From NCBI GenBank assembly GCA_011050675.1, contig DRFI01000013.1, positions 1-64,000 of the forward strand: DNA of 64,000 nucleotides. The letters are read 5' to 3'. Positions 40,393-56,229 of the stretch are shown here, piece by piece; positions within the stretch are counted from its first letter, which is position 1, and every line of letters starts with the position of its first letter. This stretch comes from Maribacter sp. (lineage in GTDB: Bacteria; Bacteroidota; Bacteroidia; Flavobacteriales; Flavobacteriaceae). The notes under the pieces are model-generated. The model was not told the origin of the DNA and did no database searches. It saw only the letters and a program-made list of their open reading frames with translations. The position numbers were made by a program, and so were the translations under genes.

Positions 40393-40430
40393 AAAATATT
40401 AAATTGAACAACGGTAAGTAATGTTTCTAA

Positions 40431-41438
40431 ATGGCAAGTAGCACTTTTGTTTGTATTGATGCGCACACCTGCGGAAATCCTGTTAGGGTGATTAAGCACG
40501 GTGGTCCTAATTTAATTGGAAATACAATGAGTGAAAAACGCCAGCATTTTCTAAAGGAATATGATTGGATCCGTAAAGGATTAATGTTTGAGCCTCGTGG
40601 GCATGATATGATGAGCGGCAGTATATTCTATGCGCCAAGTGATCCTAATAATGATTTAGGTATTTTATTTATCGAAACAAGTGGCTGTTTACCTATGTGT
40701 GGGCACGGAACTATAGGAGCGATAACAATTGGTATTGAGGAGGGATTGATAGTGCCTAAAATACACGGACAGGTTCGTATGGAAACTCCTGCAGGTTTAG
40801 TACATGTTACTTATCAGCAAACAGGAAAGAAAGTAGATTGGGTAAAATTGATTAATGTAAAGTCTTATTTGGCGGCAACCAATTTGATTATTGAATCTTC
40901 TCATTTGGGAGAACTGAGTTTTGATGTATCCTACGGAGGTAATTTTTACGCCATTATTGATCCACAAAAAAACTTTAGCGGAATACAAGATTATTCAGCC
41001 AACGAATTGATACAGTTTAGTCAAGAGTTAAGAATAGAAATTAATAGTAAGTATCCTAATTTATTTATCCATCCAGAGGATATGACTATTAGAAATGTGA
41101 GCCATATGTTATGGACTGGTACCACGATGTCTGACACTGCTACAGCAAGAAATGCTGTTTTTTATGGCGATAAAGCAATTGATCGTTCACCATGTGGTAC
41201 AGGTACTTCTGCTCGAATGGCGCAATGGTATGCAAAAGATAAATTGGCTGTGGCCGAAGATTTTATTCACGAAAGTTATATAGGGTCTCAATTTGTGGGG
41301 CGCGTCGAGGAGGTAACAGAATTGGCAGGTAAACTAGCCATTATACCCAGTATAAAAGGTTGGGCGAAAATTTATGGTCACAACACCATTACCATAGATG
41401 ATGATGACCCGTATGCTCATGGTTTTCAGGTAATATAA
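40431..41438 (+). CDS. 4-Hydroxyproline 2-epimerase (proline racemase family)
   Basis: 335 residues. Both catalytic cysteines are kept: Cys90 in LPMCGHGT and Cys255 in SPCGTGTS. Two cysteines mark epimerase or racemase; trans-3-hydroxyproline dehydratases replace one with Thr. It interconverts trans-4-hydroxy-L-proline and cis-4-hydroxy-D-proline, the first step of this pathway. 38 bases after the dehydrogenase gene. Confidence 0.93.
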   Translation: MASSTFVCIDAHTCGNPVRVIKHGGPNLIGNTMSEKRQHFLKEYDWIRKGLMFEPRGHDMMSGSIFYAPSDPNNDLGILFIETSGCLPMCGHGTIGAITIGIEEGLIVPKIHGQVRMETPAGLVHVTYQQTGKKVDWVKLINVKSYLAATNLIIESSHLGELSFDVSYGGNFYAIIDPQKNFSGIQDYSANELIQFSQELRIEINSKYPNLFIHPEDMTIRNVSHMLWTGTTMSDTATARNAVFYGDKAIDRSPCGTGTSARMAQWYAKDKLAVAEDFIHESYIGSQFVGRVEEVTELAGKLAIIPSIKGWAKIYGHNTITIDDDDPYAHGFQVI

Positions 41439-41456
41439 ACTTAGCAATGATCTAAA

Positions 41457-42704
41457 ATGAAAAATGTAGTTGTTATTGGTGCTGGTATTGTCGGTTTAAG
41501 CACTGCGTATTATTTATTAAAAGAAGGATTTCAAGTTACTATAATTGATAAAGGAGACATTACCTCTGGCGCATCGTTTGTAAATGCCGGTTATATAACA
41601 CCAAGTCATATAATTCCTTTAGCATCACCAGGTATGATTGCCAAAGGAATTAAAATGATGTTTAATTCAGCGAGTCCGTTTTATATGAAACCAAGACTTG
41701 ATGTAGATTTTCTTAAATGGTCATGGTATTTTCATAAATCTTCAACTTTAGCAAAAGTGGAAAAAGCTATTCCTCTGATCAAGGATATCAACCTTATAAG
41801 TAGACAATTATTTACTGATATAAAAAATTCGGGTGATTTAGGAGATTTTCAATTAGAGCGTAAGGGTTTACTAATGTTGTATAAGACCGAAGCAAGTTAT
41901 CTACATGAAAAGAAAGTTGCCGAAAGGGTGAATTTTGAAGGTCTTAAGGTCTCTGATTTAAACAAGTCTGAATTGCATAAATTAGAACCTAATGTAAATA
42001 TTGATGCAGAAGGAGCTATACATTACGAGTGTGATGGACATACCACACCAACTGAAATAATGCCAAAGCTATTATCTTACTTAAAAGAGCAAGGTGTTAT
42101 TATTAAGACAAATGAAGAGGTACTTGATATTAAAAGTTCTGGAACTACAATTAAGGAAGTAATTACAGATAAAGATAACTATAGACCAGATGAGGTTGTT
42201 TTGGCGGCGGGTTCTTGGAGTGGAAAACTTGCTAAAAAACTGAATTTAAAACTATCATTGCAAGGAGGTAAAGGCTATAGCATAAATGTAGCACGCGAAA
42301 CAGGTATTTCAGTACCAGCAATATTAATGGAATCTAAAATAGCGGTAACGCCTATGAACGGATTTACGAGATTTGCAGGTACTATGGAGTTTTCAGGTAA
42401 CAATGATTTCGTTAGAAAAGAAAGGGTACATGCTATTGTCAATGGTGCACGTTCGTTTTATCCTGATATAGAAATAAACGATACTGAAATAAAGGAAGTT
42501 AAGACAGGTTTACGACCCGTGTCACCAGACGGTTTGCCGTATATAGGTAAATCTACAAAGTTTACGAACCTTACAATTGCCACAGGTCATGCTATGATGG
42601 GGTGGAGTTTAGGACCTGCAACTGGTAAGCTAGTTACGGATTTATTATCTGATACTAAGCCATCTATGAACCTTGTTGCTTTTAGTCCAGAAAGAGCATT
42701 TTAA
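41457..42704 (+). CDS. FAD-dependent D-amino acid (cis-4-hydroxy-D-proline) dehydrogenase
   Basis: 415 residues of the DAO/DadA superfamily. FAD motif VVVIGAGIVGLSTAYYLL at the N-terminus, SGASFVNAGYITPSH as DadA-like family stretch, and GLRPVSPDGLPYIGKS with TGHAMMGWSLGPATG at the C-terminus. By context it oxidises cis-4-hydroxy-D-proline to the pyrroline. Last gene of the cluster, 18 bases after the epimerase. Confidence 0.9.
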   Translation: MKNVVVIGAGIVGLSTAYYLLKEGFQVTIIDKGDITSGASFVNAGYITPSHIIPLASPGMIAKGIKMMFNSASPFYMKPRLDVDFLKWSWYFHKSSTLAKVEKAIPLIKDINLISRQLFTDIKNSGDLGDFQLERKGLLMLYKTEASYLHEKKVAERVNFEGLKVSDLNKSELHKLEPNVNIDAEGAIHYECDGHTTPTEIMPKLLSYLKEQGVIIKTNEEVLDIKSSGTTIKEVITDKDNYRPDEVVLAAGSWSGKLAKKLNLKLSLQGGKGYSINVARETGISVPAILMESKIAVTPMNGFTRFAGTMEFSGNNDFVRKERVHAIVNGARSFYPDIEINDTEIKEVKTGLRPVSPDGLPYIGKSTKFTNLTIATGHAMMGWSLGPATGKLVTDLLSDTKPSMNLVAFSPERAF

Positions 42705-42737
42705 AGAATTTCAAAAAATACTCATCGGCATAGAATC

Positions 42738-42808
42738 ACCATTCACCGACACTAAACAGCCATTCACCTATAGTTGTCATTTTAACAATCATTAATCCTT
42801 GACATTTG
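42738..42808 (+). promoter_or_regulatory. Promoter of the NO-signalling operon with tandem LytTR-like boxes
   Basis: Box 1 ACCATTCACCGACAC (42738-42752) and box 2 GCCATTCACCTATAG (42759-42773) are direct repeats 21 bp start to start, two turns of the helix. A -7-like box GACATTTG lies at 42801-42808, 28 bases after box 2, and the first ATG at 42829. The 9-bp repeat with 12-bp spacer fits known LytTR operators; the operon's last gene is a LytTR regulator, so autoregulation is likely. Confidence 0.65.
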
Positions 42809-42828
42809 TCGTATCAAATAAATGAGCA

Positions 42829-43230
42829 ATGGATATATTATTAATAGAAGACGATTTAATCGAAGTAATGAAGTTGAAACGTACGGTTTCTAAACTTAAT
42901 TTAAAGCATTCTATTAAAGAAGCAAAAAATGGTGAAGAAGCATTAACCTTTTTAAGATCAGGTGAGAAATTACCAGATATTATTCTTTTAGATTTGAATA
43001 TGCCAAGAATGAATGGTATAGAATTTCTAGCTATTTTAAAGGAAGATGAAGTACTTCAGTATTTACCAACTGTTATTTTAACCACATCTGAAAATAGAGC
43101 CGATCTATTAAAATGTTACCAAGCCGGTATAGCAGGTTATGTAATTAAGCCTTTGAAATACGAGGATTATGAATATAAGCTAAATGCTGTTTTAGAGTAC
43201 TGGAATGTTAACCAATTGGTTAAAGGCTAA
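42829..43230 (+). CDS. Single-domain response regulator (REC only)
   Basis: 133 residues, one CheY-like receiver with acidic pocket E7/D8/D9, phospho-acceptor Asp55 (ILLDLNMPRMNG), Thr/Ser switch (ILTTSENR) and Lys in VIKPLK. There is no output domain. It opens the operon, 80 bases before H-NOX. Because the downstream kinases have no receiver and an Hpt protein is present, it could be the Spo0F-like first Asp of a relay. Confidence 0.9.
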   Translation: MDILLIEDDLIEVMKLKRTVSKLNLKHSIKEAKNGEEALTFLRSGEKLPDIILLDLNMPRMNGIEFLAILKEDEVLQYLPTVILTTSENRADLLKCYQAGIAGYVIKPLKYEDYEYKLNAVLEYWNVNQLVKG

Positions 43231-43310
43231 CAAAAAAGCTCATTTCACAACATTTTCCATTATTTCTGTATTAAATTTCCTACGTTTGAGAATAAATCAA
43301 ATATTTTCGA

Positions 43311-43853
43311 ATGAAAGGCATAGTGTTTACAGAGTTTTTAGAAATGGTCGAATCGGAGTTCGGTTTAGAGACTGTTGATAATATTATTGAAAAATCCAAT
43401 CTGCCATCCGAGGGTATCTATACTTCTGTTGCCACCTATGAATTCAATGAAATGGTGGCGTTGATTACCCAATTAAGTATAGAGGTAGATTTGCCTGCGG
43501 GTGATTTAATTTATGCCTTTGGACTATACTTGTTTTCAAGTTTAAAGAATGCCCACCCAGAAGTTATTCAAAACTACAAAACACCAATTGGTTTACTATA
43601 TTCTATAGAAGATCACATACATGTACATGTAAAAAAGCTGTATCCAGAAGCTGAGTTACCTACATTTAAAATTCTTGAAAAGACAGACACTTCAATTTCA
43701 ATGATATATTCCTCATCTAGAGGTTTGTATAGATTAGCCCATGGGCTAATTGAAAAAGCATTTGAACATTTTAATGGTAAGGCAGATATAAGTTATGAAC
43801 TTCTTAAGGAAGATGGAACAGAAGTGAAATTTGATGTTGTACAACATGGATAA
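43311..43853 (+). CDS. H-NOX haem nitric-oxide sensor
   Basis: 180 residues, full-length stand-alone H-NOX (HNOB) domain. Proximal haem ligand His104 (DHIHVHV), and the haem-propionate motif Y133-x-S135-x-R137 (YSSSR) is complete. The distal Tyr that lets some family members hold O2 (Tyr140 of the Thermoanaerobacter protein) aligns with Leu142, so selective binding of NO is expected. It overlaps the following kinase gene by 8 bases, the standard H-NOX/associated-kinase arrangement. NO-bound H-NOX usually inhibits the partner kinase. Confidence 0.93.
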   Translation: MKGIVFTEFLEMVESEFGLETVDNIIEKSNLPSEGIYTSVATYEFNEMVALITQLSIEVDLPAGDLIYAFGLYLFSSLKNAHPEVIQNYKTPIGLLYSIEDHIHVHVKKLYPEAELPTFKILEKTDTSISMIYSSSRGLYRLAHGLIEKAFEHFNGKADISYELLKEDGTEVKFDVVQHG

Positions 43854-46209
43854 TAAAGAAGTTGTTCTCTTAAAAAAAGCCCTTGAAAGGCAAAAAAAAG
43901 CACGTAAACAGGCTGAGGGGATTTTAGAGGAAAAATCTAAAGAACTTTACGATGTTACGCACCATCTAAGAGAATCTAACCAAAAGCTTGAAAATTTACT
44001 GAGTGAAAAAACCTCAGAGCTTGATGGTATTTTTATAAATATAATAGATCCTTACGTCGTTATGGATCTTCAGTTCAATGTAATAAACATGAACAGATCG
44101 GCCAAAGAATTTTTGGGATTTGACCATGTAGACAAATTGGTAAACCTTTCGCATTTTATACATCCAGATTTTTTAGCATATACCCAAGAATCTATGAGCT
44201 CCATGTTGGAAGTTGGTAGTTTAAAGAATTACCGAGCAAAGATTATTCTTGACGGTGGTGTTGAAAAATGGATTCAAATAAATGCTAGTCTTGTTTATGA
44301 CAAAAACCAAAGACCGATTGCCGCACAAGGCATCATTAGGGATATTTCTCAAGAAACAGAAGTAAAAAGGCTTGTTGCCGAACAAAAGGCGCAATTAGAT
44401 ATTATCGTAGAAAACTCTCCTTTAGGTATTGTACTTTCTGTCGATGGTGAAATTCTAAAGACGAATAATACGTTTGTTGAAATGCTAGGTTATAAAGAGA
44501 ATGAACTTAAACATGTCTCTTTTAAGTCTATATCTCAACCCGAAAAAATCGAGAATGAAATACACCCAATAGATGAAATGTGCGCAGGTAGGCTAGATAA
44601 GTTTACCGAAGTATGGAAATTTACTAAAAAAGATGGCACCACTATTATGGCTAAGACTATGATGTCTGCTATACACGATGACCATAGAAAAACCGATTAT
44701 CAAGTAGCAATTATAGAAGATATATCTCATCAATTAGAAGCTGATAGAAAGCTAAAAGCATCTGAAAATAGATTGTCTGCATTGATTTCTAACTTACAAA
44801 CAGGGGTGCTCTTAGAAGATGAAAATGGTAAAGTAGCATTGACCAACCAAATGTTCTGTAATATTTTCGATATTAAAAAGACTCCTAAAAACCTTATTGG
44901 AGTTGATTGCGAAGAATCTGAAGAGGAGAATAAAAAACTCTTTAAAAATCCCGATAATTTTGTAACTAGAATTGAAGAAATTCTAGCAAAGAAAGAAACT
45001 GTATTGGCAGATGAGTTAGAGATGATAGATGGTAGGGTTTTAGCAAGAGATTTTATTCCTATTGATAATGATGGCGACTACAAAGGTCATCTATGGGCAT
45101 ACCATGATATTACTATAAGTAAAAACTACAGAAAAAATTTAGAAGCTCAACGTGAAAAATATGGTAGTATAATAGCTAACATGAATTTAGGTTTAGTTGA
45201 GGTTGATAATGAAGATATTATACAGATGGTCAATCAAAGTTTTTGTAATATGAGCGGTTATGAAAGTGATTACCTTATAGGTAAAGTAGCTTCTAAGGTT
45301 GTTAAATTCAAAGATGGTGGCATTATTGAAAAGAAGAATCAGAATAGACTTGGTGGCAAATCAGAATCTTACGAAGTAGAAGTAATAGATAAAAATGATA
45401 ATGTAAAGCATTGGCTAATTAGTGGTGCACCTAGATATGATGATACTGGTTCGGTAATTGGCTCAATAGGTATACATTTAGATATTACCGATCAAAAAGA
45501 ATTAGAACTGCAAAAAGAAACATTAGTTAAAGATTTAGAGAATAGTAACCAGGGTTTACAAGAGTATGCCCATATTGTTTCTCATGATCTTAAATCGCCT
45601 TTGAGAAGTATTAGTGCATTGGCTACTTGGTTAAGCGATGATTATAAAGATGTACTAGATGAAGGTGGACGACAAAATCTTGACCTTATGCAAGAGAAGG
45701 TTGCATCGATGGATAAATTAATTCATGGTATTCTAGAATATTCAACCGCCAATAGTTCTGCTTTAGATGATTCTAAAGTGAATTTAAACGAAGTCATTTC
45801 AGATATAGGTGAAACTATATATATACCTGAACACGTAAAATTGGTAATCCCTAAACCATTGCCAACGATTATGGCAGATAGAATTAAGGTTCATCAGGTT
45901 TTTCAAAACATTATTGGTAATGCCGTTGTACATATAGAAAGGGAAGAAGGGCTTGTAGAAGTTCTCTTTAAAGATGATGGAGAATTCTGGCAGTTTACGA
46001 TTAGCGATAATGGAGTGGGTATCCCAGAAGAATATCATAAAAAGATTTTCGACATATTTCAATCTATCGGAAATAATGAAAGATCTACAGGTATAGGACT
46101 TTCTATAGTTAAGAAAATTGTTGATCGATACCAAGGTAGTGTATGGGTAGATAGTGTAGTAGGGGAAGGAACCCAATTTCATTTTACCATAAAGAAACAC
46201 CATAACTAA
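43846..46209 (+). CDS. H-NOX-associated multi-PAS sensor histidine kinase
   Basis: 787 residues from the ATG at 43846, soluble. An N-terminal coiled coil (LKKALERQKKARKQAEGIL) is characteristic of H-NOX partner kinases. Four PAS domains follow (about 60-180, 185-300, 310-430 and 440-555), then a DHp helix with phospho-His about 580 (HIVSHDLKSPLRS) and an HATPase domain (DNGVGIPEE, STGIGLSIVKKI). No receiver domain. Its DHp and ATPase closely resemble those of the kinase at 47351-48415, suggesting the same partner. Confidence 0.93.
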   Translation: MDNKEVVLLKKALERQKKARKQAEGILEEKSKELYDVTHHLRESNQKLENLLSEKTSELDGIFINIIDPYVVMDLQFNVINMNRSAKEFLGFDHVDKLVNLSHFIHPDFLAYTQESMSSMLEVGSLKNYRAKIILDGGVEKWIQINASLVYDKNQRPIAAQGIIRDISQETEVKRLVAEQKAQLDIIVENSPLGIVLSVDGEILKTNNTFVEMLGYKENELKHVSFKSISQPEKIENEIHPIDEMCAGRLDKFTEVWKFTKKDGTTIMAKTMMSAIHDDHRKTDYQVAIIEDISHQLEADRKLKASENRLSALISNLQTGVLLEDENGKVALTNQMFCNIFDIKKTPKNLIGVDCEESEEENKKLFKNPDNFVTRIEEILAKKETVLADELEMIDGRVLARDFIPIDNDGDYKGHLWAYHDITISKNYRKNLEAQREKYGSIIANMNLGLVEVDNEDIIQMVNQSFCNMSGYESDYLIGKVASKVVKFKDGGIIEKKNQNRLGGKSESYEVEVIDKNDNVKHWLISGAPRYDDTGSVIGSIGIHLDITDQKELELQKETLVKDLENSNQGLQEYAHIVSHDLKSPLRSISALATWLSDDYKDVLDEGGRQNLDLMQEKVASMDKLIHGILEYSTANSSALDDSKVNLNEVISDIGETIYIPEHVKLVIPKPLPTIMADRIKVHQVFQNIIGNAVVHIEREEGLVEVLFKDDGEFWQFTISDNGVGIPEEYHKKIFDIFQSIGNNERSTGIGLSIVKKIVDRYQGSVWVDSVVGEGTQFHFTIKKHHN

Positions 46210-46220
46210 TACTTCCGAAA

Positions 46221-47351
46221 ATGAAAATAGTTCAAGCAATAAAAAAATCTAACGAACCTTTTAAACTCAATAATTCTGTTGCGTTAAAAGAGCCGTTGGT
46301 ATTAGTTTTTGGTAATAGATATTTATTAGAAAGTAATCAAATTTATGCAGAGGTTAGAGAAATGTTCCCTAACGGTCATATTGTATTTGGTACTACATCT
46401 GGTGAGATTATAGATGATACCGTTCTTGATAATTCTGTTGTCTTAACTGCAATTGAATTTGAAAAAAGTTCAATTTTGGTAAAAAGGAGTAATGTTAACG
46501 ATTTTAACAACGATGATGAAAAATTAGGGAGGAGCCTTATGGACGAATTTCCTAGAGAAAATTTAAAGCACGTATTTGTTATATCAGAAGGTAGTACGGT
46601 AAATGGTAGCGCTCTTATCGCGGGAATTGAACATTTAGGAAATACTAGTTTTGGACTTTCTGGTGGGCTCTGTGGTGATGATGATCGTTTTGAACGAACA
46701 TTGGCTTCCTATAATGAAAACCCTAAAGAAGGTGAAATTATAGCTATTGGTTTTTATGGCGAAACTTTAGAAATCACTAGTTCTAATTATGGTGGATGGA
46801 CAACTTTTGGTCCAGAACGAATAATTACAAAATCTGATGGTAATGTACTTTATGAGCTAGATGGTAAACCAGCTTTAGATTTATATAAAACTTATTTAGG
46901 TGATAAAGCAAAAGAGTTGCCAAAGTCAGCTTTGCTATATCCTTTGAGTGTAAAAACGACACAAGATTCTGAAGCATTGGTGCGTACTATTCTAAATATA
47001 GATGAAGTAGAAAATACGATGACACTTGCAGGCGACGTTCCGGAAGGGGCTAGGGTGCAATTAATGATGTCTTCTGTTGATGATATTGCTAATGGTGCTT
47101 TTCATGCAGCAGAATTAGCAATGAACGATAGAAAGAATCCTCCAGAGCTAGCATTATTAATTAGTTGCATTGGCAGAAAATTGGTAATGGATCAAAGAAC
47201 GGAAGAAGAAATAGAAGAAGTGAAAGCTGTAATAGGTGATAATACTGTAATTGGCGGGTTTTATTCTTATGGCGAAATGGCCCCATTTAGTGGTCAAGAT
47301 AGTTGTAAATTACATAACCAGACCATGACATTAACCTTATTTAGCGAATAA
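46221..47351 (+). CDS. FIST-domain protein, NosP-like NO sensor
   Basis: 376 residues with FIST N-terminal (about 25-215, PNGHIVFGTTSGEI and FGLSGGLCGDDDRFERT) and FIST C-terminal (about 220-365, ELPKSALLYPLSV ... GGFYSYGEMAP) domains and no signal peptide. FIST proteins next to histidine kinases were shown in other bacteria to be haem NO sensors (NosP). It shares a TAATG start/stop overlap with the next kinase, the NosP-NahK arrangement. Haem binding by this protein is inferred from context. Confidence 0.9.
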   Translation: MKIVQAIKKSNEPFKLNNSVALKEPLVLVFGNRYLLESNQIYAEVREMFPNGHIVFGTTSGEIIDDTVLDNSVVLTAIEFEKSSILVKRSNVNDFNNDDEKLGRSLMDEFPRENLKHVFVISEGSTVNGSALIAGIEHLGNTSFGLSGGLCGDDDRFERTLASYNENPKEGEIIAIGFYGETLEITSSNYGGWTTFGPERIITKSDGNVLYELDGKPALDLYKTYLGDKAKELPKSALLYPLSVKTTQDSEALVRTILNIDEVENTMTLAGDVPEGARVQLMMSSVDDIANGAFHAAELAMNDRKNPPELALLISCIGRKLVMDQRTEEEIEEVKAVIGDNTVIGGFYSYGEMAPFSGQDSCKLHNQTMTLTLFSE

Positions 47352-48415
47352 TGCATTCACTATTAAAAAGACAGATTCGAAAATATTTACCTAGTGATCT
47401 AGAATCAAATCCCGAATTGGATAAGTTTTTAGAGGCAATAGAAAAATCGTATGAAAATTACGATGATAAATTTTCTATGCTCCACAGAGCTTCTACAATT
47501 AGCTCTGATGAACTTTTTGAAGCAAATAAGAAATTACAAAAAGAAGCCGAACAGCAGAAAAATATTTTAAATTCATTAGAAAATGCCATTCGTAGTTTAA
47601 CAGATAGTTTAAACGAAGAGCAATTATTTGGTCAAAAAATACAAAACGAATTTAATGCAGAAGATCTTGCAGGTTACATAAGTAATTTAGCATCTCAGTT
47701 TTCTAAGATGACAGTTGAAAAAGATAAACTTCTTATCAGTTTAGAAAACCAAAATGAATCTTTAAACAATTATGCGCAAATGGTATCGCATGATTTAAAA
47801 TCACCAATTAGAAACATTAACGCTCTAATGAGTTGGATAATGCAAGATGAGAAGGACAAATTCTCTAACACCAGTAAAGAAAATTGTTCATTGGTATCTC
47901 AAAACCTGGCAAAGATGGATAAACTTATTTCGGGTATACTAAGCCATGCGACATTGGGCGAAACAGAAGAGTTTAAGGTTTCGTTCGGTTTAATAGATAG
48001 TTTAAAAGATATAGAGCGAACAATTTATGTTCCAGATAATATAACATTTGAGTATCCTGTGGAGCTGCCACAGATGGTCTTTGAAAAGGCACGTTTAGAA
48101 CAATTGTTCATGAACTTGTTTACAAATGCCATTACTGCTACTGAAAACGTAGGAAAAGGAATAATTAAAATTGGCTACGAACCAGATGATGTATATTGGA
48201 AATTTAGTGTTTCCGATAACGGTAAAGGAATTGCAGTTAAACATCAAAAAGGAATCTTTGAAATGTTTAAAAAGCTAGAAACAGCTAATAATGCAACCGG
48301 TATAGGACTTGCAATTGTTAAGAAAATTGCAGTTCTTTATGAAGGTGATGTATGGTTGGAGTCAGAAGAAAATGTAGGCACTACATTTTTTATAACTTTA
48401 AAAAAGAATTCATGA
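47351..48415 (+). CDS. NosP-associated-type histidine kinase
   Basis: 354 residues, soluble, without PAS. The N-terminus LLKRQIRKYLPSDLESN ... FLEAIEKSYENYD and a long coiled coil (50-140) resemble NahK-type kinases that pair with NosP. DHp His147 (MVSHDLKSPIRN) and HATPase (DNGKGIAVKH, ATGIGLAIVKKI) follow. NahK proteins elsewhere are often hybrids with a receiver; this one ends after the ATPase, which fits a split relay with the separate REC and Hpt genes. Overlaps the Hpt gene as ATGA. Confidence 0.9.
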   Translation: MHSLLKRQIRKYLPSDLESNPELDKFLEAIEKSYENYDDKFSMLHRASTISSDELFEANKKLQKEAEQQKNILNSLENAIRSLTDSLNEEQLFGQKIQNEFNAEDLAGYISNLASQFSKMTVEKDKLLISLENQNESLNNYAQMVSHDLKSPIRNINALMSWIMQDEKDKFSNTSKENCSLVSQNLAKMDKLISGILSHATLGETEEFKVSFGLIDSLKDIERTIYVPDNITFEYPVELPQMVFEKARLEQLFMNLFTNAITATENVGKGIIKIGYEPDDVYWKFSVSDNGKGIAVKHQKGIFEMFKKLETANNATGIGLAIVKKIAVLYEGDVWLESEENVGTTFFITLKKNS

Positions 48416-48732
48416 TAGATCAACCTAACCTTAATTATGTAAATGAACTTGCCGGTGACGATGTTGAATTTAGAGGTCAATTCATCGATATAATCAAGAA
48501 CGAGTTCCCCCAGGAAAAAGAAGAATATTTTGGTCATGTATCTAATACTAGGGTAAAAGAAACAGCTGAAATCGTTCATAAATTAAAACACAAATTCAAT
48601 ATTCTGGGCATGGAAAATTCCTATAAGTTGGCTGTTGTCTATGAAATGGAATTATTAGAAGGCAAGCACGATAGCCAATCTAAATTCAAAGAAATTTTAG
48701 AAACTATTGAAGAATATATTAAAACAATATAA
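48412..48732 (+). CDS. Hpt-domain phosphotransfer protein
   Basis: 106 residues from the ATG at 48412, which overlaps the kinase stop; the frame extends upstream but without support. All-helical Hpt fold with phospho-His56 in EIVHKLKHKFNILGME, the usual H-x-L-K pattern followed by the LGM turn. A stand-alone Hpt links the Asp of one receiver to another. The LytTR gene starts on the next base after its stop. Confidence 0.88.
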   Translation: MIDQPNLNYVNELAGDDVEFRGQFIDIIKNEFPQEKEEYFGHVSNTRVKETAEIVHKLKHKFNILGMENSYKLAVVYEMELLEGKHDSQSKFKEILETIEEYIKTI

Positions 48733-49443
48733 ATGAACTGTATTATTATTGATGACGAAGCTATGGCAAGGGCAATTGTAAGACAATTGTGTTCTAAAAT
48801 ACCAGGGCTTGATGTCATTGAGGAATTTGATAATGCCATATCAGCAATTAAATTTCTAAATCAACAGGATATAGATGTCATATTTTTAGATATTCATATG
48901 CCTGGTTTTAGTGGTGTTGATTTTGTACAGACACTTAAAGATCCACCAAAAGTAGTTATGACTACTTCTGACACTGATTTTGCGATTGCTGCTTATGAAT
49001 ATGAATGTATCGTTGATTATTTAGTAAAACCGATTACGTTAGAACGATTTGAAAAAAGTATTGCAAAGATTCATAGCGCTTCAACTCAAAAACCACAAGC
49101 AAAGGTAGCAGCTAACGCGGATTCGGCGGTAGGTGAAGATTTATATATAAATATTGATAGAAGGTTGATAAAGCTAAAGCTTGATGAAATTTTGGTTATT
49201 GAGGCCAAAGGAGATTATATAGATGTTAAAACAGAAAAAGAAGAACACAGAGTACATACAACCTTAAAGAAAATTAAGGAAAAATTACCCGAAAAATTGT
49301 TTCTTCAAATACACCGATCGTACATTATTAATTTTACTAAAATTATTGATATAGAGGATAATAGTGTATTGATTGCAAAAAATGTAGTGCCTATAAGCCG
49401 ATCTAATCGTCCAGAATTAATGAGACGATTAAACCTACTATAA
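48733..49443 (+). CDS. LytTR-family response regulator
   Basis: 236 residues: receiver (1-120; D7, D8, phospho-acceptor Asp53 in IFLDIHMPGFSG, Lys in DYLVKPI) and a C-terminal LytTR DNA-binding domain (about 135-236; ILVIEAKGDYIDVKT, FLQIHRSYIINF, VPISRSNRPELM). LytTR proteins bind pairs of about 9-bp direct repeats 12-13 bp apart. Last gene of the NO operon and the only DNA-binding output in it. Confidence 0.94.
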   Translation: MNCIIIDDEAMARAIVRQLCSKIPGLDVIEEFDNAISAIKFLNQQDIDVIFLDIHMPGFSGVDFVQTLKDPPKVVMTTSDTDFAIAAYEYECIVDYLVKPITLERFEKSIAKIHSASTQKPQAKVAANADSAVGEDLYINIDRRLIKLKLDEILVIEAKGDYIDVKTEKEEHRVHTTLKKIKEKLPEKLFLQIHRSYIINFTKIIDIEDNSVLIAKNVVPISRSNRPELMRRLNLL

Positions 49444-49455
49444 CAGATATTTTAT

Positions 49456-49869
49456 TTACCAATTTTCGTGGTAAATCTTTTTAAAGATTTCTGCTAGCTC
49501 AATCTTGTTTACTGGCTTAACAACATAGCCTGTTAACTCTTCGAAGTGTGAGGCCTTTTTAATATCACTGTCGCGCATAGAAGAACTCACCATATAGATA
49601 TTTACGTCGTTTTGAATTTTGTCCTTAAGTTTTTTAAACTCGTTTAAAAATCCCCATCCATCTAAGAATGGCATGTTAATGTCTAAGAAAATAACTTCAG
49701 GAAGATCAATTTTTTCTTCGGTACATTTAGAAATGTATTCAACAGCTTGTTCTCCATCTGTAAATGTACTTACCACCAAATCTTTCGATAATTGGTGAAT
49801 GGTCTTTTTCATTAAATATAAATACAGTTCGTCATCATCGACTAGTAAAATGTTTGGTTTTGTTGTCAT
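49456..49869 (-). CDS. Single-domain response regulator, partner of the adjacent kinase
   Basis: 137 residues, receiver only, with phospho-acceptor Asp63 (IFLDINMPFLDG), DDD acidic pocket at 11-13 and GYVVKPV. It converges on the LytTR gene and directly follows a membrane histidine kinase gene (1-base gap) in the same direction, so they form a pair. No output domain; cross-talk with the Hpt of the neighbouring operon is possible. Confidence 0.9.
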   Translation of the reverse strand: MTTKPNILLVDDDELYLYLMKKTIHQLSKDLVVSTFTDGEQAVEYISKCTEEKIDLPEVIFLDINMPFLDGWGFLNEFKKLKDKIQNDVNIYMVSSSMRDSDIKKASHFEELTGYVVKPVNKIELAEIFKKIYHENW

Positions 49870-49870
49870 T

Positions 49871-51658
49871 TTAAAATATTAGTTTAAACGTGGTTCCTAC
49901 TCCTTCTTTACTATTTATTGTTATGGTTGCGTTGAGTGCGTCTAGTTGAGATTTTACTAAAAACAGCCCCATACCTTTGCCAGAAATATTTCTATGAAAT
50001 CTTTTGTAGAGTTTAAATACATTGTCTCCATGACGTTCCATATTTAATCCTATTCCATTATCCCTCACATATAAGACCTTATGCTTATTTTCTATTGCTG
50101 TTTTAAACTCTATATATGACGCAACATCATCTCTTTTATATTTTATGGAATTTGATATAAAGTTGTGAATTATGCTTTGTAAATAGAATTTGGAATACGA
50201 GATATGATCCCATGCATCTATGTTTATCAATACTTCAAATCCGGTATCTTCTAAAAGTGTTTCGGTAAATTCATGTTTTACTTCCGCTATAAGTTCTTGA
50301 AGGTCAATATTTGTAATTTTAATTTCCTTACTGTCTAAGATAGATACGTACTTATTTATATCTTTTGTTAGGTTCGTTATACTGTTAGAAACCTGTTCTA
50401 ATTTAGGTAAGAGTTGATTTAGTATCTCAGGATTTTTTTCGATTCTAATCATTTCTACAATGACCGACATACTAGTTACAGGCGCCCTAAGGTTATGAGA
50501 AATTAAATAATTGAAATCGCTTAACTGCTTGTTACGTATTTCTAAACTATTATTCATTTCATTGACAATCACGTTATTCTCCTCTAATTGGTCCTTACTT
50601 CTTGTAAGCAATATATTCTTACTCTCTAATTCTTTATAAAACAGATCTTTTTCCGCTTTCTTTTTTTGAAAAACATAACTTAAAGTAAACAGACCAATAA
50701 TGGCGATGATATTAAACGTAATAAAACTATCTAATAAAGGCTGTACGTAAGATTTTATTAACCTTGGCGGTATTTCTAAAATCATGTACCAATTACTTGG
50801 CGTAACAATCTCTGATGGTAAATTAGATTTTGAACCAAACGAACTTTTAGTTCCATTTAAAACTATAGGTTGCAATCGCCAAATGTGATCATCATCTACA
50901 ATTGTAGTGTCAAGTGTTATGCCTTTTATATTTGATATTAAATCAATGGGAAAAACGTTATCAACATTACCAGTTTCATATGGTAAGTCTTCTTCATGCA
51001 GACTTGAGCTTATTACGCGGTGGTTTTCATCTAATAAAAAAAGTTCTGTATCGGCAACTTTAGATTTAAGTTGGTCAAGTACTCTTTTCATTTTAAAATT
51101 AATAACAACTACACCTATTTTAGTTTGAGTAGTGTCAAAAATTGGAGCTACTGCTCTAAGAACTGGCTTGTTAGGTTTTTCAATGATGCCATTTTCCCTA
51201 TTTAAACTTATTTGAGATAGATATAACTGATTTTTGGACAATGCCAAACCAGCCCTAACATATTGATGGTTTTCTTTATTCTGTAAGTTGCCAATGGTTA
51301 CTGAGTCTGCGCTATTTCTTACGGCTCTAAAAAATTCTTGTCCATGGAGATCTATGAAACGAAATTGATCATAATCTGTTATTTCTTTTATTAATTCGAT
51401 ATATCGGTCCATGAAAGAAGTATGCTTTCCCATGGGGTCAAAACTTACTGGGTATTCTAAGTTAGACCAGTACACCGTGTCATCAAGTAGAGCATTACAT
51501 TGTTCAAGAAAATAATTCTTTTTTAATATAGCATCTCGTTGTTGATATTCAGATAAGGCAATAATCTGCTTCTCTTTTTGCGAATAAAAGATGTACATTG
51601 TTAGGGCTACCAACGGAACATATAAACCTATAAACATTTTAAAAACTCTCTTCCACAT
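49871..51658 (-). CDS. Membrane sensor histidine kinase with extracellular sensing domain
   Basis: 595 residues. One membrane helix at about 7-25, a periplasmic sensor of about 285 residues that looks like a double-Cache/CHASE-like module, second helix about 311-330, coiled coil, DHp with His388 (YLISHNLRAPVTSM) and HATPase (NGIGLNMERHGDNVF, GKGMGLFLVK). The ligand is unknown. Its DHp differs from the two NO-operon kinases. Confidence 0.9.
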   Translation of the reverse strand: MWKRVFKMFIGLYVPLVALTMYIFYSQKEKQIIALSEYQQRDAILKKNYFLEQCNALLDDTVYWSNLEYPVSFDPMGKHTSFMDRYIELIKEITDYDQFRFIDLHGQEFFRAVRNSADSVTIGNLQNKENHQYVRAGLALSKNQLYLSQISLNRENGIIEKPNKPVLRAVAPIFDTTQTKIGVVVINFKMKRVLDQLKSKVADTELFLLDENHRVISSSLHEEDLPYETGNVDNVFPIDLISNIKGITLDTTIVDDDHIWRLQPIVLNGTKSSFGSKSNLPSEIVTPSNWYMILEIPPRLIKSYVQPLLDSFITFNIIAIIGLFTLSYVFQKKKAEKDLFYKELESKNILLTRSKDQLEENNVIVNEMNNSLEIRNKQLSDFNYLISHNLRAPVTSMSVIVEMIRIEKNPEILNQLLPKLEQVSNSITNLTKDINKYVSILDSKEIKITNIDLQELIAEVKHEFTETLLEDTGFEVLINIDAWDHISYSKFYLQSIIHNFISNSIKYKRDDVASYIEFKTAIENKHKVLYVRDNGIGLNMERHGDNVFKLYKRFHRNISGKGMGLFLVKSQLDALNATITINSKEGVGTTFKLIF

Positions 51659-52301: not shown

Positions 52302-52306
52302 GATAT

Positions 52307-53233
52307 TTGATTTATAACCAAGTCAATTTTTGGACTCTAAAAAACGTAATCAAGACGGCAATAAAACTAGTATTTAATAAAGTTTCTCCCGAAAAATTAT
52401 TCATGGGGAGTGTACTGGTCATTAATGGAGATAATTATCTCTATAATGTTATCTTGGGTAGATTGCTTGGTCCTGCAATATATAGGGAAGCAGCATTAAT
52501 TATAATCTTATTACTGGTGCTATCCTTTTTAGGAACGACCTTTCAACTTGCCACTGCAAAATTCGCAATATTATTTATCTATGATGATTGGATTGCTATA
52601 AAGCAACTTTTGTATACATATGCATTATGTTTTTGGATGCTAATTGGTATATTCATTTTTGCTTTAGCCAATAACCTATTGGTTAAGCATTATTTTGATA
52701 CTGTAAATACAGGTCTTTATTCTTCATTGGCCATGATTTGGCATGTGGTTTATTTTGTGGCTTGGATGTTCGGAATGTTATTGTTGCCCGCTGTGGTACA
52801 AAAGCAAAAAGGTGGTGAAGCTACTGCACCAATACTAATTAAGTATATAAGCTATGTGGGCGTACTGGCAATTTCTATAATTTTCTGCTGTGCCGTTTTT
52901 CCAGAATTTATAATGCCATTAATTTTTGGTGAGGCTTATATATCAATAGTAACATTATTATGGCAATATACACTTGCTACGTCGTTACTCGCAATCTCCA
53001 ATATATTTGCTTATTACTTTTTATCATTAAATCAGTATGTTACTTTTATACTTTCTGGTGTTCTTGGAATTTCACAAATTGTAATGATCATTTTCTTTCA
53101 TAGTACCTTATATATGGTAGTTCAAATTCAAATTATAGCAATGGTAGCATTGTTGGTTGCTCAGCTATTTTATTTTACACATAATAATATTTTAAATAAG
53201 ACGACTTCATCCTATCGTCCTAGAAAAATATAA
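52307..53233 (+). CDS. Shortened polysaccharide flippase-like membrane protein
   Basis: 308 residues from a TTG (or 276 from the ATG at 52403), with about 8 hydrophobic helices, resembling oligosaccharide flippase (MATE/MOP) proteins of flavobacterial glycan loci (NGDNYLYNVILGRLLGPA near the N-terminus, FGEAYISIVTLLWQYTLA later). Flippases of this sort have about 12-14 helices and over 400 residues; here the text passes from helix 3-4 (ALCFWMLIGIFIFALA) straight into a segment expected near mid-protein (LLVKHYFDTVNTGLYSSLA). An in-frame internal loss of about 100-130 residues is inferred from family memory. It may be non-functional. Confidence 0.6.
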   Translation: MIYNQVNFWTLKNVIKTAIKLVFNKVSPEKLFMGSVLVINGDNYLYNVILGRLLGPAIYREAALIIILLLVLSFLGTTFQLATAKFAILFIYDDWIAIKQLLYTYALCFWMLIGIFIFALANNLLVKHYFDTVNTGLYSSLAMIWHVVYFVAWMFGMLLLPAVVQKQKGGEATAPILIKYISYVGVLAISIIFCCAVFPEFIMPLIFGEAYISIVTLLWQYTLATSLLAISNIFAYYFLSLNQYVTFILSGVLGISQIVMIIFFHSTLYMVVQIQIIAMVALLVAQLFYFTHNNILNKTTSSYRPRKI

Positions 53234-53361
53234 CCTCGAGGAAATCTCGCATTTTAGGTTATTATATAATGTCCACATGTTTATAGATGAACAGTGTGTT
53301 ATTATAAGTGATTTATATAGTGGTGTGTAAAGGTGAATTTATGGCTTAACGCGTATTTACT

Positions 53362-53431
53362 TCCATTCGTCTACAGTAAATCTTCATCCACCTAAAATCG
53401 CTATAAAAGCTTCGTCTTAGTTGGATATTTG
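53362..53431 (+). promoter_or_regulatory. Promoter of the GT4 gene with tandem LytTR-like boxes
   Basis: Box 1 TCCATTCGTCTACAG (53362-53376) and box 2 TTCATCCACCTAAAA (53383-53397), 21 bp start to start, and a -7-like GATATTTG at 53424-53431, 27 bases after box 2. ATG at 53470. Same layout as at 42738-42808. Confidence 0.6.
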
Positions 53432-53469
53432 TTCCAGAAATAACCCAAATAGTATTTAAACCTTAACCT

Positions 53470-54699
53470 ATGAAGCTTGCAATTGTTACTGCATATCCCC
53501 CAAGTAAAGTGACCTTAACCGAATACGGATATCACTTAGTAAAACATTTTAGACTTCAAAAAGAAGTAACGGAAATAATATTGATTACCGACAAAACTAA
53601 AGGAGAGAAAGATCTTAATTTCAATGAAGACGGATGTAAGATTACGGTAAAAGAATGTTGGAGTTTTAATGACTACACGAACCTTTTCAAAATTAACCGT
53701 GTAATTACAGAAACAAAACCAGACGCAGTACTTTTTAACTTACAGTTCTTAAAATTTGGGGATAAGAAAATACCCGCAGCCCTTGGTTTAATGTTACCAT
53801 TAATGTGCAAATTAAAGGGAATACCTACTATTTCATTATTGCATAATATTTTGGAGCAAGTAGATTTAGAAAATGCCGGTATTACTTCTAATAAACTAGT
53901 GCAAAAGTTTTGTGGGACAATTGGTAATATGCTAACAAGATTTGTATTGGCTTCAGATGTTGTTGCGGTAACGATAAGTAAATATCAAACCATATTAGAG
54001 AACAAATACGAGTCTAGAAATGTGGCTCTAATTCCGCACGGCTCTTTTGAAACTCCACCAGAACCTGACTATAGATTGCCCGTAGGACCAAAGAAAATTA
54101 TGGCTTTTGGAAAGTTCGGTACTTATAAAAAGGTAGAGATTATGATTGAAGCGATAGAATTGGTAAGAAAGCGTACAAATGAAGACATCGAAATTGTAAT
54201 TGCCGGCACCAATAGCCTCAATACCCCTGGTTATTTAGAAGGTGTGAAAAAGAAATATGCACATGTAGAACAATTACATTTTACAGGTTATGTTGCAGAA
54301 GAAGATGTACCAGTAATTTTTGGTGAAAGTGCTGTGGTGGTTTTTCCTTATACTTCTACTACAGGTAGTTCTGGAGTTCTTCACCAAGCTGGCAGCTATG
54401 GTAAGGCAGTTGTGTTACCAGATTTGGGACACTTAAGTACTTTGGTAAAAGAAGAAGGTTATAAAGGTGAGTTTTTTGAGCCTGAAAGTGCAGATTCTTT
54501 GGCAGATGCTATAGAGAATATTCTGGTCCACGATTCGTATAGAGCATATTTAGCAAAGGCAAATTATAGAGCAGCTTCCTCTTTTCCTATGTCAGATATT
54601 ACAAAAATGTACTTAGAGTATTTTAAAGTATTACAATTAGCAAAATCGAAAGGTTTCACTTTAGATGTGCCTATGGTAGAAAAAGAATTAATGTTATAA
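53470..54699 (+). CDS. Glycosyltransferase family 4-type
   Basis: 409 residues with GT-B fold features: N-terminal MKLAIVTAYPPSK and a C-terminal donor-binding domain with KIMAFGKFGTYKKVEIMIEA, EDVPVIFGESAVVVFPY and GSSGVLHQAGSYGKAVVLPD. It transfers a sugar from an NDP-sugar to a glycan or lipid acceptor; the substrate is unknown. Cytoplasmic. It has its own LytTR-like promoter and a strong terminator, so it forms a single transcription unit between the flippase-like and REC-GT2 genes. Confidence 0.9.
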   Translation: MKLAIVTAYPPSKVTLTEYGYHLVKHFRLQKEVTEIILITDKTKGEKDLNFNEDGCKITVKECWSFNDYTNLFKINRVITETKPDAVLFNLQFLKFGDKKIPAALGLMLPLMCKLKGIPTISLLHNILEQVDLENAGITSNKLVQKFCGTIGNMLTRFVLASDVVAVTISKYQTILENKYESRNVALIPHGSFETPPEPDYRLPVGPKKIMAFGKFGTYKKVEIMIEAIELVRKRTNEDIEIVIAGTNSLNTPGYLEGVKKKYAHVEQLHFTGYVAEEDVPVIFGESAVVVFPYTSTTGSSGVLHQAGSYGKAVVLPDLGHLSTLVKEEGYKGEFFEPESADSLADAIENILVHDSYRAYLAKANYRAASSFPMSDITKMYLEYFKVLQLAKSKGFTLDVPMVEKELML

Positions 54700-55062: not shown

Positions 55063-56229
55063 ATGAAAATCTTAGCCATAGATGACCAAAAACTAATTTT
55101 ACTATCTGTTGAAAAACGATTATCAGAATTGGGCTATGAAGTAGAAACGGCCAATTCAATTGAAACAGGTATTAGGTTGTTCGATTCATTTAAACCCGAC
55201 TTGGTTTTATTAGATATGAATATGCCAGAAATGGCTGGGACAGAATTGGTGTCATGTACAGGTACAGAAGTAGTTAAATACATTCGTGTATTTATGAAAA
55301 ATGATACTCCTATCCTTGTAATGTCCGGTAATACGGATGAGGCATTAATTATGAAAAATTTTAATCTAGGCGTAAATGACTACTTGAAAAAACCAGTAAG
55401 TCTAGATGAAATGGCTGCTAGAATTAAGAGAATAATTGGAGCGCCGGAAAACAATGGGATAACTACAACAACAATATCTGACACCCGTATGCTTCAGAAA
55501 AATTGCATTGGTGTAGTAATTCCGTGTTATAATGAGGAGACAAGACTTTCATGTGAAGAGTTTAAAGACTTCGCTCATAAAAATTTAGGCTACCACCTTT
55601 GTTTTGTAAATGATGGTAGTACAGATAATACCATGGCTGTATTACAGAAACTACAAAAAGAAAATCCTTCTAATATTAGCGTGTACAATTACAAGCAAAA
55701 TGGAGGTAAAGCAGAAGCGGTTCGCCAAGGTGTTCTTCAGCTAGTAAAAGATAAACAATTTGATTATATCGGATTTTTAGATGCAGATCTATCGACTGAT
55801 TTTAGAGATTTTAATGATTTGGTAATAACGATTGAACAGTCAGATTTTAAAATAGTAAGCGGTTCCCGTATATCAAGAATGGGAGCTAATATTACAAAAG
55901 AGTCTGCTCATAAGGTGATTAGCATGACTATTAATTTAATTATCCAAACCATTTTGTGGATGCCCTTTAAAGATGCACAATGTGGTGCCATGGTAATGGA
56001 CCGTGAAGTTGCTTCTAAAATGTTCACTAAAGAATTTGTTACCAATTGGTTGTTTGATGTTGAGCTTTTTATGAGAATGAAAAGATATTTTGGTAAAACA
56101 GAGGTAAAGAGAATGATTTGTGAGCAACCGTTAAAAAGATGGATACATGCAGATCGTTCTAAACTTTCAATGAAAGACTCCGTAAAAATTGTTGGTCAAC
56201 TAGCTCAAATTGCAGTTCACTATAGGTAA
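55063..56229 (+). CDS. Response-regulator receiver fused to a GT2 glycosyltransferase
   Basis: 388 residues in two parts. Residues 1-125 are a receiver with D7/D8, phospho-acceptor Asp51 (LLDMNMPEM), Ser88 and Lys110 (LKKP). Residues 148-385 are a family 2 glycosyltransferase of the dolichol-phosphate-mannose-synthase type: VVIPCYNEE, NDGSTDNT (183), GGKAEAVRQG, and FLDADLSTD (240) as the metal site. No membrane helix follows. Phosphorylation would act directly on the enzyme, an unusual arrangement. The receiver has an 8-residue insertion after Asp51. Likely substrates are a nucleotide sugar and polyprenyl phosphate (inference). Confidence 0.9.
   Translation: MKILAIDDQKLILLSVEKRLSELGYEVETANSIETGIRLFDSFKPDLVLLDMNMPEMAGTELVSCTGTEVVKYIRVFMKNDTPILVMSGNTDEALIMKNFNLGVNDYLKKPVSLDEMAARIKRIIGAPENNGITTTTISDTRMLQKNCIGVVIPCYNEETRLSCEEFKDFAHKNLGYHLCFVNDGSTDNTMAVLQKLQKENPSNISVYNYKQNGGKAEAVRQGVLQLVKDKQFDYIGFLDADLSTDFRDFNDLVITIEQSDFKIVSGSRISRMGANITKESAHKVISMTINLIIQTILWMPFKDAQCGAMVMDREVASKMFTKEFVTNWLFDVELFMRMKRYFGKTEVKRMICEQPLKRWIHADRSKLSMKDSVKIVGQLAQIAVHYR

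What the first reader, a model, noticed from the sequence alone, without database searches (positions are those of the whole stretch)
42829..49443. One operon with two different NO-sensor classes and a split four-step phosphorelay
Read directly: REC (Asp55), H-NOX, multi-PAS kinase, FIST/NosP-like protein, second kinase, Hpt (His56) and LytTR regulator (Asp53), with seven genes in one direction, mostly overlapping. H-NOX with its kinase and NosP with its kinase are each known separately as NO-sensing pairs. Here both are joined to the same REC/Hpt/LytTR set. Neither kinase has a receiver, and each relay step is on a separate protein, so kinase His -> REC Asp -> Hpt His -> LytTR Asp is the simplest model. 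Output is by a LytTR transcription factor rather than by cyclic-di-GMP enzymes, which are scarce in this group.
Basis: partly seen in the sequence, partly recalled or inferred. Interest (0 to 1): 0.92.

Follow-up and report, generated by a model that had tools for sequence, protein, structure and literature searches.

The report
Nitric-oxide relay with two sensors
A marine bacterium carries a seven-gene signalling unit that joins a nitric-oxide sensor and a second, less understood sensor to one relay, and DNA marks shared with related bacteria suggest that the relay switches itself and nearby surface-sugar genes on or off.

Summary
Window 42829-49443 (a Maribacter, judged by its nearest relatives) holds REC, H-NOX, PAS-kinase, FIST, kinase, Hpt and LytTR genes in one direction, with every named phospho-residue present and invariant in the relatives aligned. 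It is not a one-off. H-NOX occurs in 146 of 397 sampled family genomes. The core REC/H-NOX/kinase/Hpt/LytTR is nearly constant; FIST plus second kinase is an all-or-none cassette between kinase 1 and Hpt.

One correction: the FIST protein is not NosP by the curated model (57 bits against a cut-off of 450; annotated NosPs score 500), so a second NO sensor is unproven.

It is absent where LytTR has left the operon and sits instead at the relocated LytTR. The same site recurs 2-30 kb downstream, before flippase, glycosyltransferase and REC-glycosyltransferase genes. Best model: H-NOX and FIST each tune a kinase; both kinases feed REC, Hpt, then LytTR, which controls its own operon and polysaccharide genes. 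Phosphotransfer order, NO response and DNA binding are inferred. In the window strain this sugar cluster is partly decayed. New variant of a known kind.

The parts
42739..42768 (+). predicted LytTR operator, CCATTCACC-N12-CCATTCACC (21-bp period), upstream of the operon
   Evidence: sequence; 0 mismatches to family pattern at 42740-42772; a match with 4 or fewer mismatches lies upstream of REC in 102 of 125 family loci with LytTR after Hpt
42829..43230 (+). stand-alone receiver (REC), phospho-Asp55
   Evidence: Pfam 76 bits; D55 in 217 of 217 aligned
43311..43853 (+). H-NOX heme-NO sensor, His104 proximal ligand, Y133/S135/R137
   Evidence: Pfam HNOB 131 bits; 202 bits to 6bde; H104, Y133, S135 in 220 of 220, R137 in 216 of 220
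43846..46209 (+). kinase 1: PAS repeats + HisKA (His580) + HATPase, no receiver
   Evidence: His in 213 of 213
46221..47351 (+). FIST_N-FIST_C protein; sensor of unproven ligand; not a NosP equivalog
   Evidence: model matches FBXO22
47351..48415 (+). kinase 2: HisKA (His147) + HATPase, no PAS and no receiver match
   Evidence: His in 124 of 124; found with FIST in 76 of 77 family loci that have FIST
48412..48732 (+). histidine phosphotransferase (Hpt), His56
   Evidence: H56 in 206 of 206; AF2 model and Foldseek Hpt matches
48733..49443 (+). LytTR response regulator, Asp53; DNA-binding output
   Evidence: Pfam LytTR 69 bits, REC 68 bits; D53 in 194 of 194
53364..53396 (+). second predicted LytTR site, 73 nt before the glycosyltransferase gene
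   Evidence: 2 mismatches; sites in comparable places in other genera
53470..54699 (+). predicted target: GT4-type glycosyltransferase
   Evidence: Pfam Glyco_trans_1_4 72 bits; 65-87% identical relatives in 12 of 12 neighbourhoods fetched because they had downstream sites
55063..56229 (+). REC-GT2 fusion (receiver joined to a family-2 glycosyltransferase); relatives have a predicted site upstream in 9 of 11 neighbourhoods, the window copy has none directly upstream
   Evidence: (Pfam of the L298 relative)
52307..53233 (+). flippase (Wzx-like) gene with an internal deletion; part of the same cluster
   Evidence: by similarity to L301 and other relatives, no Pfam match of its own

Best explanation
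The operon is a split, multi-input phosphorelay. H-NOX binds NO and tunes kinase 1. The FIST protein senses a second cue, possibly NO or heme but not shown, and tunes kinase 2. Both kinases have a similar docking surface and pass phosphate to the single stand-alone REC (Asp55), from there to Hpt (His56) and then to the LytTR regulator (Asp53). Phospho-LytTR binds direct repeats CCATTCRYC-N12-CCATTCRYC upstream of the operon itself and, in many relatives, upstream of a neighbouring polysaccharide cluster (STAS, flippase, GT4, REC-GT2). The sensors therefore act on transcription of surface-sugar genes without a c-di-GMP step inside the operon. By analogy with Vibrio, NO-bound H-NOX probably lowers kinase 1 activity. 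Shown: gene content, residues, conservation, the FIST-kinase cassette, the motif and its association with LytTR and the cluster. Inferred: ligands, direction of response, phosphotransfer order, DNA binding, and that the sugar genes are the target.
For: Invariant phospho-sites and heme His. FIST and kinase 2 are found together or not at all in 138 of 139 family loci; the exception, L151, has FIST and ends near there. Kinase 1 and kinase 2 share 4 of 6 docking positions, against at most 2 (vs kinase 1) or 3 (vs kinase 2) for 20 other kinases of the own genome. Hpt fold. Motif upstream of REC in 102 of 125 family loci and 62 of 65 named loci with LytTR after Hpt; control 1 of 430. In 10 loci (six genomes, as the two sets overlap) LytTR is missing although the contig continues, and the motif is missing too; in 5 of 5 of these genomes examined, motif-REC-LytTR lies elsewhere. 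Motif in 100 of 146 H-NOX+ and 10 of 251 H-NOX- genomes; 8 of those 10 carry a close Hpt relative (counted by hand). Of 150 listed sites 41 lie 2-30 kb downstream on the same strand, 0.24 expected. Motif not found within about 1.5 kb of the LytTR domains of the other 20 LytTR genes of the own genome.
Against: No experiment. Co-location cannot give the order of transfer: the kinases could phosphorylate LytTR directly and REC or Hpt could be a sink. The FIST protein is not a NosP equivalog. Kinase pairs within operons are no more alike than pairs between operons (matched 0.597, shuffled mean 0.605), so co-evolution of the two kinases was not seen; 4 of 190 pairs among the other kinases are as alike in this helix as kinases 1 and 2. 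The motif fails at 4 mismatches in 23 of 125 family loci and at 2 mismatches in 46 of 146 H-NOX+ genomes. In the window strain the sugar cluster is decayed: porin-like TPR gene a remnant, flippase internally deleted, 1030-aa membrane protein not found.
Confidence: 0.6

Rival explanations
1. Two parallel two-component systems share an operon: kinase 1 and kinase 2 phosphorylate LytTR (or its REC) directly, and the stand-alone REC and the Hpt act as phosphate sink or serve another output such as gliding or secretion.
For: Both kinases are ordinary HisKA kinases without receivers; in five genomes LytTR lies elsewhere with its own second REC copy while REC/H-NOX/kinase/FIST/kinase/Hpt stays together.
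Against: Hpt is present in 133 of 139 loci with its His invariant, and LytTR follows it within 2 kb in 127; the relocated LytTR again travels with a REC; one H-NOX-negative genome looked at keeps REC, kinase, Hpt and LytTR together (L303).
Confidence: 0.25
2. The FIST protein is a NosP-like heme/NO sensor, so the operon reads NO twice at different ranges or redox states.
For: Same domain pair as NosP, beside its own kinase; FIST occurs mostly in H-NOX+ genomes (93 of 116); NosP and H-NOX both feed the Hpt LuxU in Vibrio species (PMC6769237, passages); NosP has a His one column away from His365 (MHVNQT against KLHNQT).
Against: 57 bits against the NosP model's 450; four loci carry a still more distant FIST in the same slot (31-44 bits); no aligned His shared with NosP.
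Confidence: 0.3
3. The FIST cassette senses something else, such as a thiol/redox state, heme itself or a small metabolite, and the operon integrates NO with that second cue.
For: Cys151 in 119, Cys316 in 124, Cys362 in 120 and His365 in 120 of 125 sequences; FIST sequences 38-40% identical on Azospirillum and Legionella plasmids are not annotated NosP; the model matches the FIST part of FBXO22; FIST proteins have been linked to heme as ligand (PMC8846402, passages).
Against: No ligand is known to me for this subfamily; it would be a coincidence that it sits with H-NOX unless the cues are related.
Confidence: 0.4
4. The repeats near the sugar genes are bound by another regulator, and their sharing with the relay operon reflects common regulation by a third factor.
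For: Motif prediction only; two H-NOX- genomes without a close Hpt relative have a match (G292, G351).
Against: The motif leaves and moves with LytTR, has the direct-repeat geometry of LytTR sites (PMC4064291, passage) and is not found near the other LytTR genes of the genome.
Confidence: 0.15

Closest known systems
Vibrio fischeri HnoX-HahK-SypF/LuxU-SypG-syp (PMC12369376, passages read)
   Same: H-NOX controls a kinase; phosphate passes through receiver and Hpt to a DNA-binding regulator that drives polysaccharide genes
   Different: there the kinase carries its own receiver, Hpt is a domain of SypF or the protein LuxU, the regulator is SypG rather than LytTR, and the operon described is hnoX-hahK alone
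Vibrio harveyi H-NOX/HqsK/LuxU/LuxO and V. cholerae NosP/VpsS/LuxU (PMC6769237, passages)
   Same: heme sensor inhibits a kinase that feeds a shared Hpt and a transcription factor
   Different: hybrid kinases, one NO sensor class per described circuit, quorum-sensing output
Shewanella oneidensis HnoX/HnoK/HnoB/HnoD (PMC8846402, passages) with a NosP arm (title seen in a reference list)
   Same: H-NOX with separate kinase and response regulators; NosP signalling modulates the same network (by that title)
   Different: output is a c-di-GMP phosphodiesterase
NosP-NosK-NosR of Burkholderia pseudomallei (PMC12570481, passages)
   Same: FIST protein with an adjacent kinase that has no recognised sensory domain
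   Different: NosR carries a degenerate HD-GYP domain; the FIST protein here is not a NosP equivalog
LytTR regulators such as AgrA and AlgR (PMC4064291, passages)
   Same: REC-LytTR; direct repeats of 8-13 bp about 12 bp apart
   Different: different motif sequence; fed through an Hpt in the model proposed here

Membership tests
H-NOX | HNOB domain over the curated cut-off | tested here: met
   131 bits, cut-off 25.5
H-NOX | proximal heme His and YxSxR motif | tested here: met
   His104, Y133, S135 in 220 of 220, R137 in 216 of 220; motif names recalled
H-NOX | binds heme and NO and tunes its kinase | not testable with these tools
   needs protein
NosP | FIST_N + FIST_C beside a kinase | tested here: met
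NosP | NCBIfam NosP equivalog score | tested here: not met
   57 bits, cut-off 450; two annotated NosPs score 500
NosP | heme/NO binding | not testable with these tools
   no aligned His shared with NosP, though one lies a column away; the one paper that one search found for the NosP heme ligand was not opened
Hpt | helix-bundle fold with conserved His | tested here: met
   exposure of the His not computed
Hpt | Pfam Hpt match | tested here: not met
   no family at E 0.01; I weigh the fold match above this
LytTR response regulator | REC + LytTR domains | tested here: met
LytTR response regulator | binds direct repeats about 12 bp apart | tested here: inconclusive
   repeats present and associated with the gene; binding not tested
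four-step phosphorelay | kinase His, receiver Asp, Hpt His, output Asp all present | tested here: met
four-step phosphorelay | phosphate moves in that order | not testable with these tools
   needs purified proteins

The most novel reading that the evidence does not exclude
A widespread Flavobacteriaceae signalling module in which a gas sensor (H-NOX) and a distinct, non-NosP FIST sensor are plugged as interchangeable kinase-sensor cassettes into one split REC-Hpt-LytTR relay. Its LytTR regulon, marked by a 21-bp-period operator not matched to any known one here, is a neighbouring polysaccharide cluster that includes a receiver-glycosyltransferase fusion, so NO acts on surface sugar at transcription, without c-di-GMP.
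Probability: 0.45. Interest if true: 0.78.

Novelty: new variant of a known kind. Interest (0 to 1): 0.63.

Why it matters
The NO circuits described in the papers read (PMC8846402, PMC8738867, PMC6769237, PMC12369376, PMC12570481; sections or passages) are proteobacterial, and most act through c-di-GMP. If the model holds, a large marine bacterial family uses a different, transcriptional route with two sensor inputs. The operator motif makes the regulon testable at once. The all-or-none FIST-kinase cassette gives a natural comparison set for how a second sensor is added to a relay.

Tried and rejected
FIST as NosP: rejected as a family label. Search of the large protein database for FIST relatives: could not be made. 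Kinase co-evolution within operons: no signal, matched 0.597 vs shuffled 0.605. A first control set of other kinases in the fetched neighbourhoods was only 3, so the own genome was used: 30 HisKA loci (of 35 hits), of which 21 were parsed (9 dropped by the motif rule) and one is kinase 1 itself, leaving 20. Rfam in 42600-56300: nothing. Solved structures by sequence for FIST: none relevant.

Papers. H-NOX with 'FIST domain' 1 paper (PMC12570481, read by passages); H-NOX with LytTR 2 (PMC6769237, read by passages; PMC8396549, listing only); H-NOX with Kordia algicida 1 (listing only); NosP with heme ligand 1 (listing only). Listings (20 of 31 shown; 15 of 24; 10 of 25) showed no title or abstract start describing this operon. 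One search was badly chosen: it was swamped (6,446 papers, 15 shown, none holding H-NOX) and says nothing. Most subscription journals are not in the library. Opened: PMC8738867 (one section and passages), PMC12570481, PMC6769237, PMC4064291, PMC12369376 and PMC8846402 (passages). Recalled, from no call: that 6bde/6bdd is the Kordia algicida H-NOX, the DHp docking positions, the H-NOX YxSxR motif, and the reading of Polysacc_synt proteins as Wzx-like flippases and of the TPR gene as a porin-like exporter.

Limits of the counts. 140 of 150 H-NOX hit places were fetched (the own one and the 9 weakest were not). One of the 140, L113, was dropped from the counts because its H-NOX is too distant; there the FIST gene lies upstream of H-NOX. 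21 named loci have the same REC and H-NOX proteins as a locus of the family sample, so the two sets are not independent. The motif pattern was drawn from the window and named loci L033-L112. The site listing was cut short: 150 sites in 99 genomes are listed, while 110 genomes had one. The 12 downstream neighbourhoods were chosen because they had sites. The empty answer for the 1030-aa protein has no positive control in that call.
Full report
WHAT IS THERE. Neither kinase has a receiver match. The Hpt has no Pfam match, but its start at 48412 gives 106 aa with His56, and its predicted fold (mean pLDDT 94.5) matches solved Hpt domains first (3myf TM-score 0.75/0.70, then BarA, fungal and plant Hpts; Foldseek E-values of 0.04 and above, probability up to 1.00). 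H-NOX matches solved H-NOX 6bde at 202 bits, with the proximal His aligned. Across relatives plus window the phospho-Asp of REC (217 of 217), the His of kinase 1 (213 of 213), kinase 2 (124 of 124) and Hpt (206 of 206), the Asp of LytTR (194 of 194) and the heme His of H-NOX (220 of 220) are invariant; 110 to 198 of these sequences are distinct.

IT IS A FAMILY MODULE. The window's nearest named relatives are Maribacter species (H-NOX 98% identical in M. stanieri). H-NOX occurs in 146 of 397 sampled family genomes and in 27 of 395 genomes of the phylum sample, which includes family members. In 139 analysed family loci (140 fetched of 150 hit places) REC is found in 136, kinase 1 in 138, Hpt in 133, LytTR within 2 kb after Hpt in 127, FIST in 77 and kinase 2 in 76. 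FIST and kinase 2 go together in every locus but one, L151, which ends near its FIST gene. In all 75 family loci that have both FIST and Hpt, and all 47 such named loci, the cassette lies between kinase 1 and Hpt; in L113, which was not counted, a FIST gene lies upstream of a much diverged H-NOX. No named locus has FIST or kinase 2 alone. The two sets overlap: 21 named loci have the same REC and H-NOX as a family locus. On a quick tree of the four core proteins (125 loci) the cassette's presence changes at least 23 times, against 41 on average for 100 shuffles (minimum 32). It is therefore partly inherited and often lost or gained. Four loci carry a much more distant FIST in that slot (L119, L133, L168, L188). 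Twenty H-NOX-negative genomes keep a close Hpt relative (E up to 1e-20, counted by hand), and one of them, looked at in full, has REC, kinase, Hpt and LytTR without H-NOX (L303). I take the relay to be the core and the sensors to be plug-ins.

THE SECOND SENSOR. The FIST protein has both FIST domains, but scores 57 bits on the curated NosP model, whose cut-off is 450; two annotated NosPs from Azospirillum score 500 in the same test. It is 20-21% identical to them, against 39-40% to two other FIST proteins not named NosP. No histidine is shared with NosP in the alignment, although NosP has one a single column from His365, so equivalence is not excluded. Cys316 is kept in 124, Cys151 in 119, Cys362 and His365 in 120 of 125 sequences; in the alignment the distant FISTs lack the last three. 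No FIST sequence relative was found in the PDB; the model (mean pLDDT 79.8) matches FBXO22 best. Whether it binds heme or NO is open.

ONE RELAY FOR TWO KINASES. The two kinases share the helix after the phospho-His: 44% identity over H+6 to H+23 and 4 of 6 docking positions. Twenty other kinases of the own genome average 20% and 14% and share at most 2 positions with kinase 1 or 3 with kinase 2; 4 of 190 pairs among those others are as alike as kinases 1 and 2. Over the loci both classes mostly keep Arg at H+7 (208 of 210 and 118 of 123), Leu at H+12 (206 and 122) and Trp at H+15 (209 and 112). This fits one common partner. It does not say which receiver, and no pairwise co-evolution within operons was seen.

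THE OPERATOR. Upstream of the operon lie CCATTCACC repeats with a 21-bp period at 42739-42747 and 42760-42768. LytTR regulators bind direct repeats of 8-13 bp about 12 bp apart (PMC4064291, section 9, passage). The repeats recur upstream of REC at 4 or fewer mismatches in 102 of 125 family loci and 62 of 65 named loci that have LytTR after Hpt; a control of shuffled and reverse-complement sequence gave 1 of 430. Twelve loci have Hpt without a recognised LytTR after it. Two of these, L110 and L164, have the motif, and their contigs end soon after Hpt. In five of five such genomes examined, two of them with identical REC and H-NOX, the motif lies elsewhere, directly before a REC-LytTR pair with LytTR 72-75% identical to the window's. 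In L307, the one scanned, that pair sits beside NirB/NirD-like nitrite reductase genes and a HisKA_3 kinase with a PilJ domain. Genome-wide at 2 mismatches the motif is in 100 of 146 H-NOX-positive and 10 of 251 H-NOX-negative genomes; the reversed-pattern control hit 3 of 397 genomes. Eight of those ten have a close Hpt relative (8 of 20 with it, 2 of 231 without; by hand). Part of this association is built in, because the operon promoter itself holds the site. The motif is not found within about 1.5 kb of the LytTR domains of the other 20 LytTR genes of the own genome (best 6-8 mismatches).

THE LIKELY TARGETS. Of 150 listed sites, 73 are operon promoters and 41, in 32 genomes, lie 2-30 kb downstream on the same strand, where 0.24 would be expected among the 66 other sites of H-NOX-positive genomes; 20 lie on other contigs, 4 further than 30 kb, 1 on the opposite strand and 11 in H-NOX-negative genomes. 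Twelve such neighbourhoods were fetched, chosen because they had sites. All 12 hold a flippase and a GT4 gene; a site (3 or fewer mismatches) precedes the flippase, mostly with a small gene before it (STAS in the one scanned), in 11 of 12, and the REC-GT2 fusion in 9 of 11 (the twelfth stretch ends before it). Other sites precede GT4 or a large protein with a type IX secretion tail. The cluster also holds a TPR protein of 686 aa, a glycosidase-like protein and a 1029-aa membrane protein (Pfam of L298). I read it as polysaccharide synthesis and export; no product is known. In the window a site lies at 53364-53396, 73 nt before a GT4 gene at 53470, with REC-GT2 at 55063. But here the cluster is partly decayed: only about the last sixth of the TPR gene remains, with a stop, the flippase lacks about a quarter internally, and the 1030-aa protein was not found in the genome.

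COMPARISON. H-NOX or NosP acting through a kinase, receiver and Hpt on a transcription factor is known in Vibrio: HqsK/LuxU/LuxO, VpsS/LuxU (PMC6769237, passages) and HahK/SypF or LuxU/SypG controlling syp polysaccharide (PMC12369376, passages). FIST genes near H-NOX genes have been reported from neighbourhood networks (PMC8738867, section 10). What differs here is one operon with every relay step on its own protein, two kinase-sensor pairs, LytTR output with its own predicted operator, and wide conservation in one family. No description of this operon was seen in the listings of the paper searches (one search was swamped and is no evidence), which show only part of the hits and lack most subscription journals. 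I file it as a new variant of a known kind.

HOW SURE. Gene content, conservation, motif and its association with LytTR: high. Shared relay: about 0.6. NO as the cue for H-NOX: likely from family knowledge. FIST as a NO sensor: about 0.3. Sugar genes as direct targets: about 0.65 in relatives, less in the window strain because of the decay.

Noticed in passing
51931-52301 (-) and 52307-53233 (+): Remnant of a TPR gene (only about residues 576-686 of the relative's 687, with a stop) beside a flippase gene that lacks about 110 internal residues: the polysaccharide cluster is decaying in this strain.
   Followed up: partly
55063-56229: Receiver domain fused to a family-2 glycosyltransferase; relatives in 9 of 11 neighbourhoods have a predicted LytTR site upstream.
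   Followed up: partly
L304-L308 (L307 scanned in detail): In genomes whose LytTR left the operon, motif-REC-LytTR lies elsewhere; in L307 it sits beside nitrite-reductase-like genes and a PilJ/HisKA_3 kinase.
   Followed up: partly
L303: H-NOX-negative genome with REC, kinase, Hpt and LytTR kept together, next to a gene with rubredoxin and nitrite/sulfite-reductase ferredoxin-like domains.
   Followed up: no
49456-51658 (-): Convergent pair of a Cache-like sensor kinase and a stand-alone receiver directly after the operon, with similar genes after the operon in several Maribacter loci.
   Followed up: no
38815-42704: Aldehyde dehydrogenase, proline-racemase-like and FAD amino-acid oxidase-like genes just upstream, by the look of their translations (not scanned), perhaps hydroxyproline breakdown.
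   Followed up: no
e.g. genomes G225, G261, G101, G069: Closely spaced arrays of 4 FIST genes of a lower-scoring kind in these family genomes, none of which has H-NOX.
   Followed up: no
L341-L344, L361, L367: A genus of the same family has a much diverged H-NOX (23-26% identical) directly after a 57-63% identical REC: possibly a second H-NOX subfamily with the same partner.
   Followed up: no
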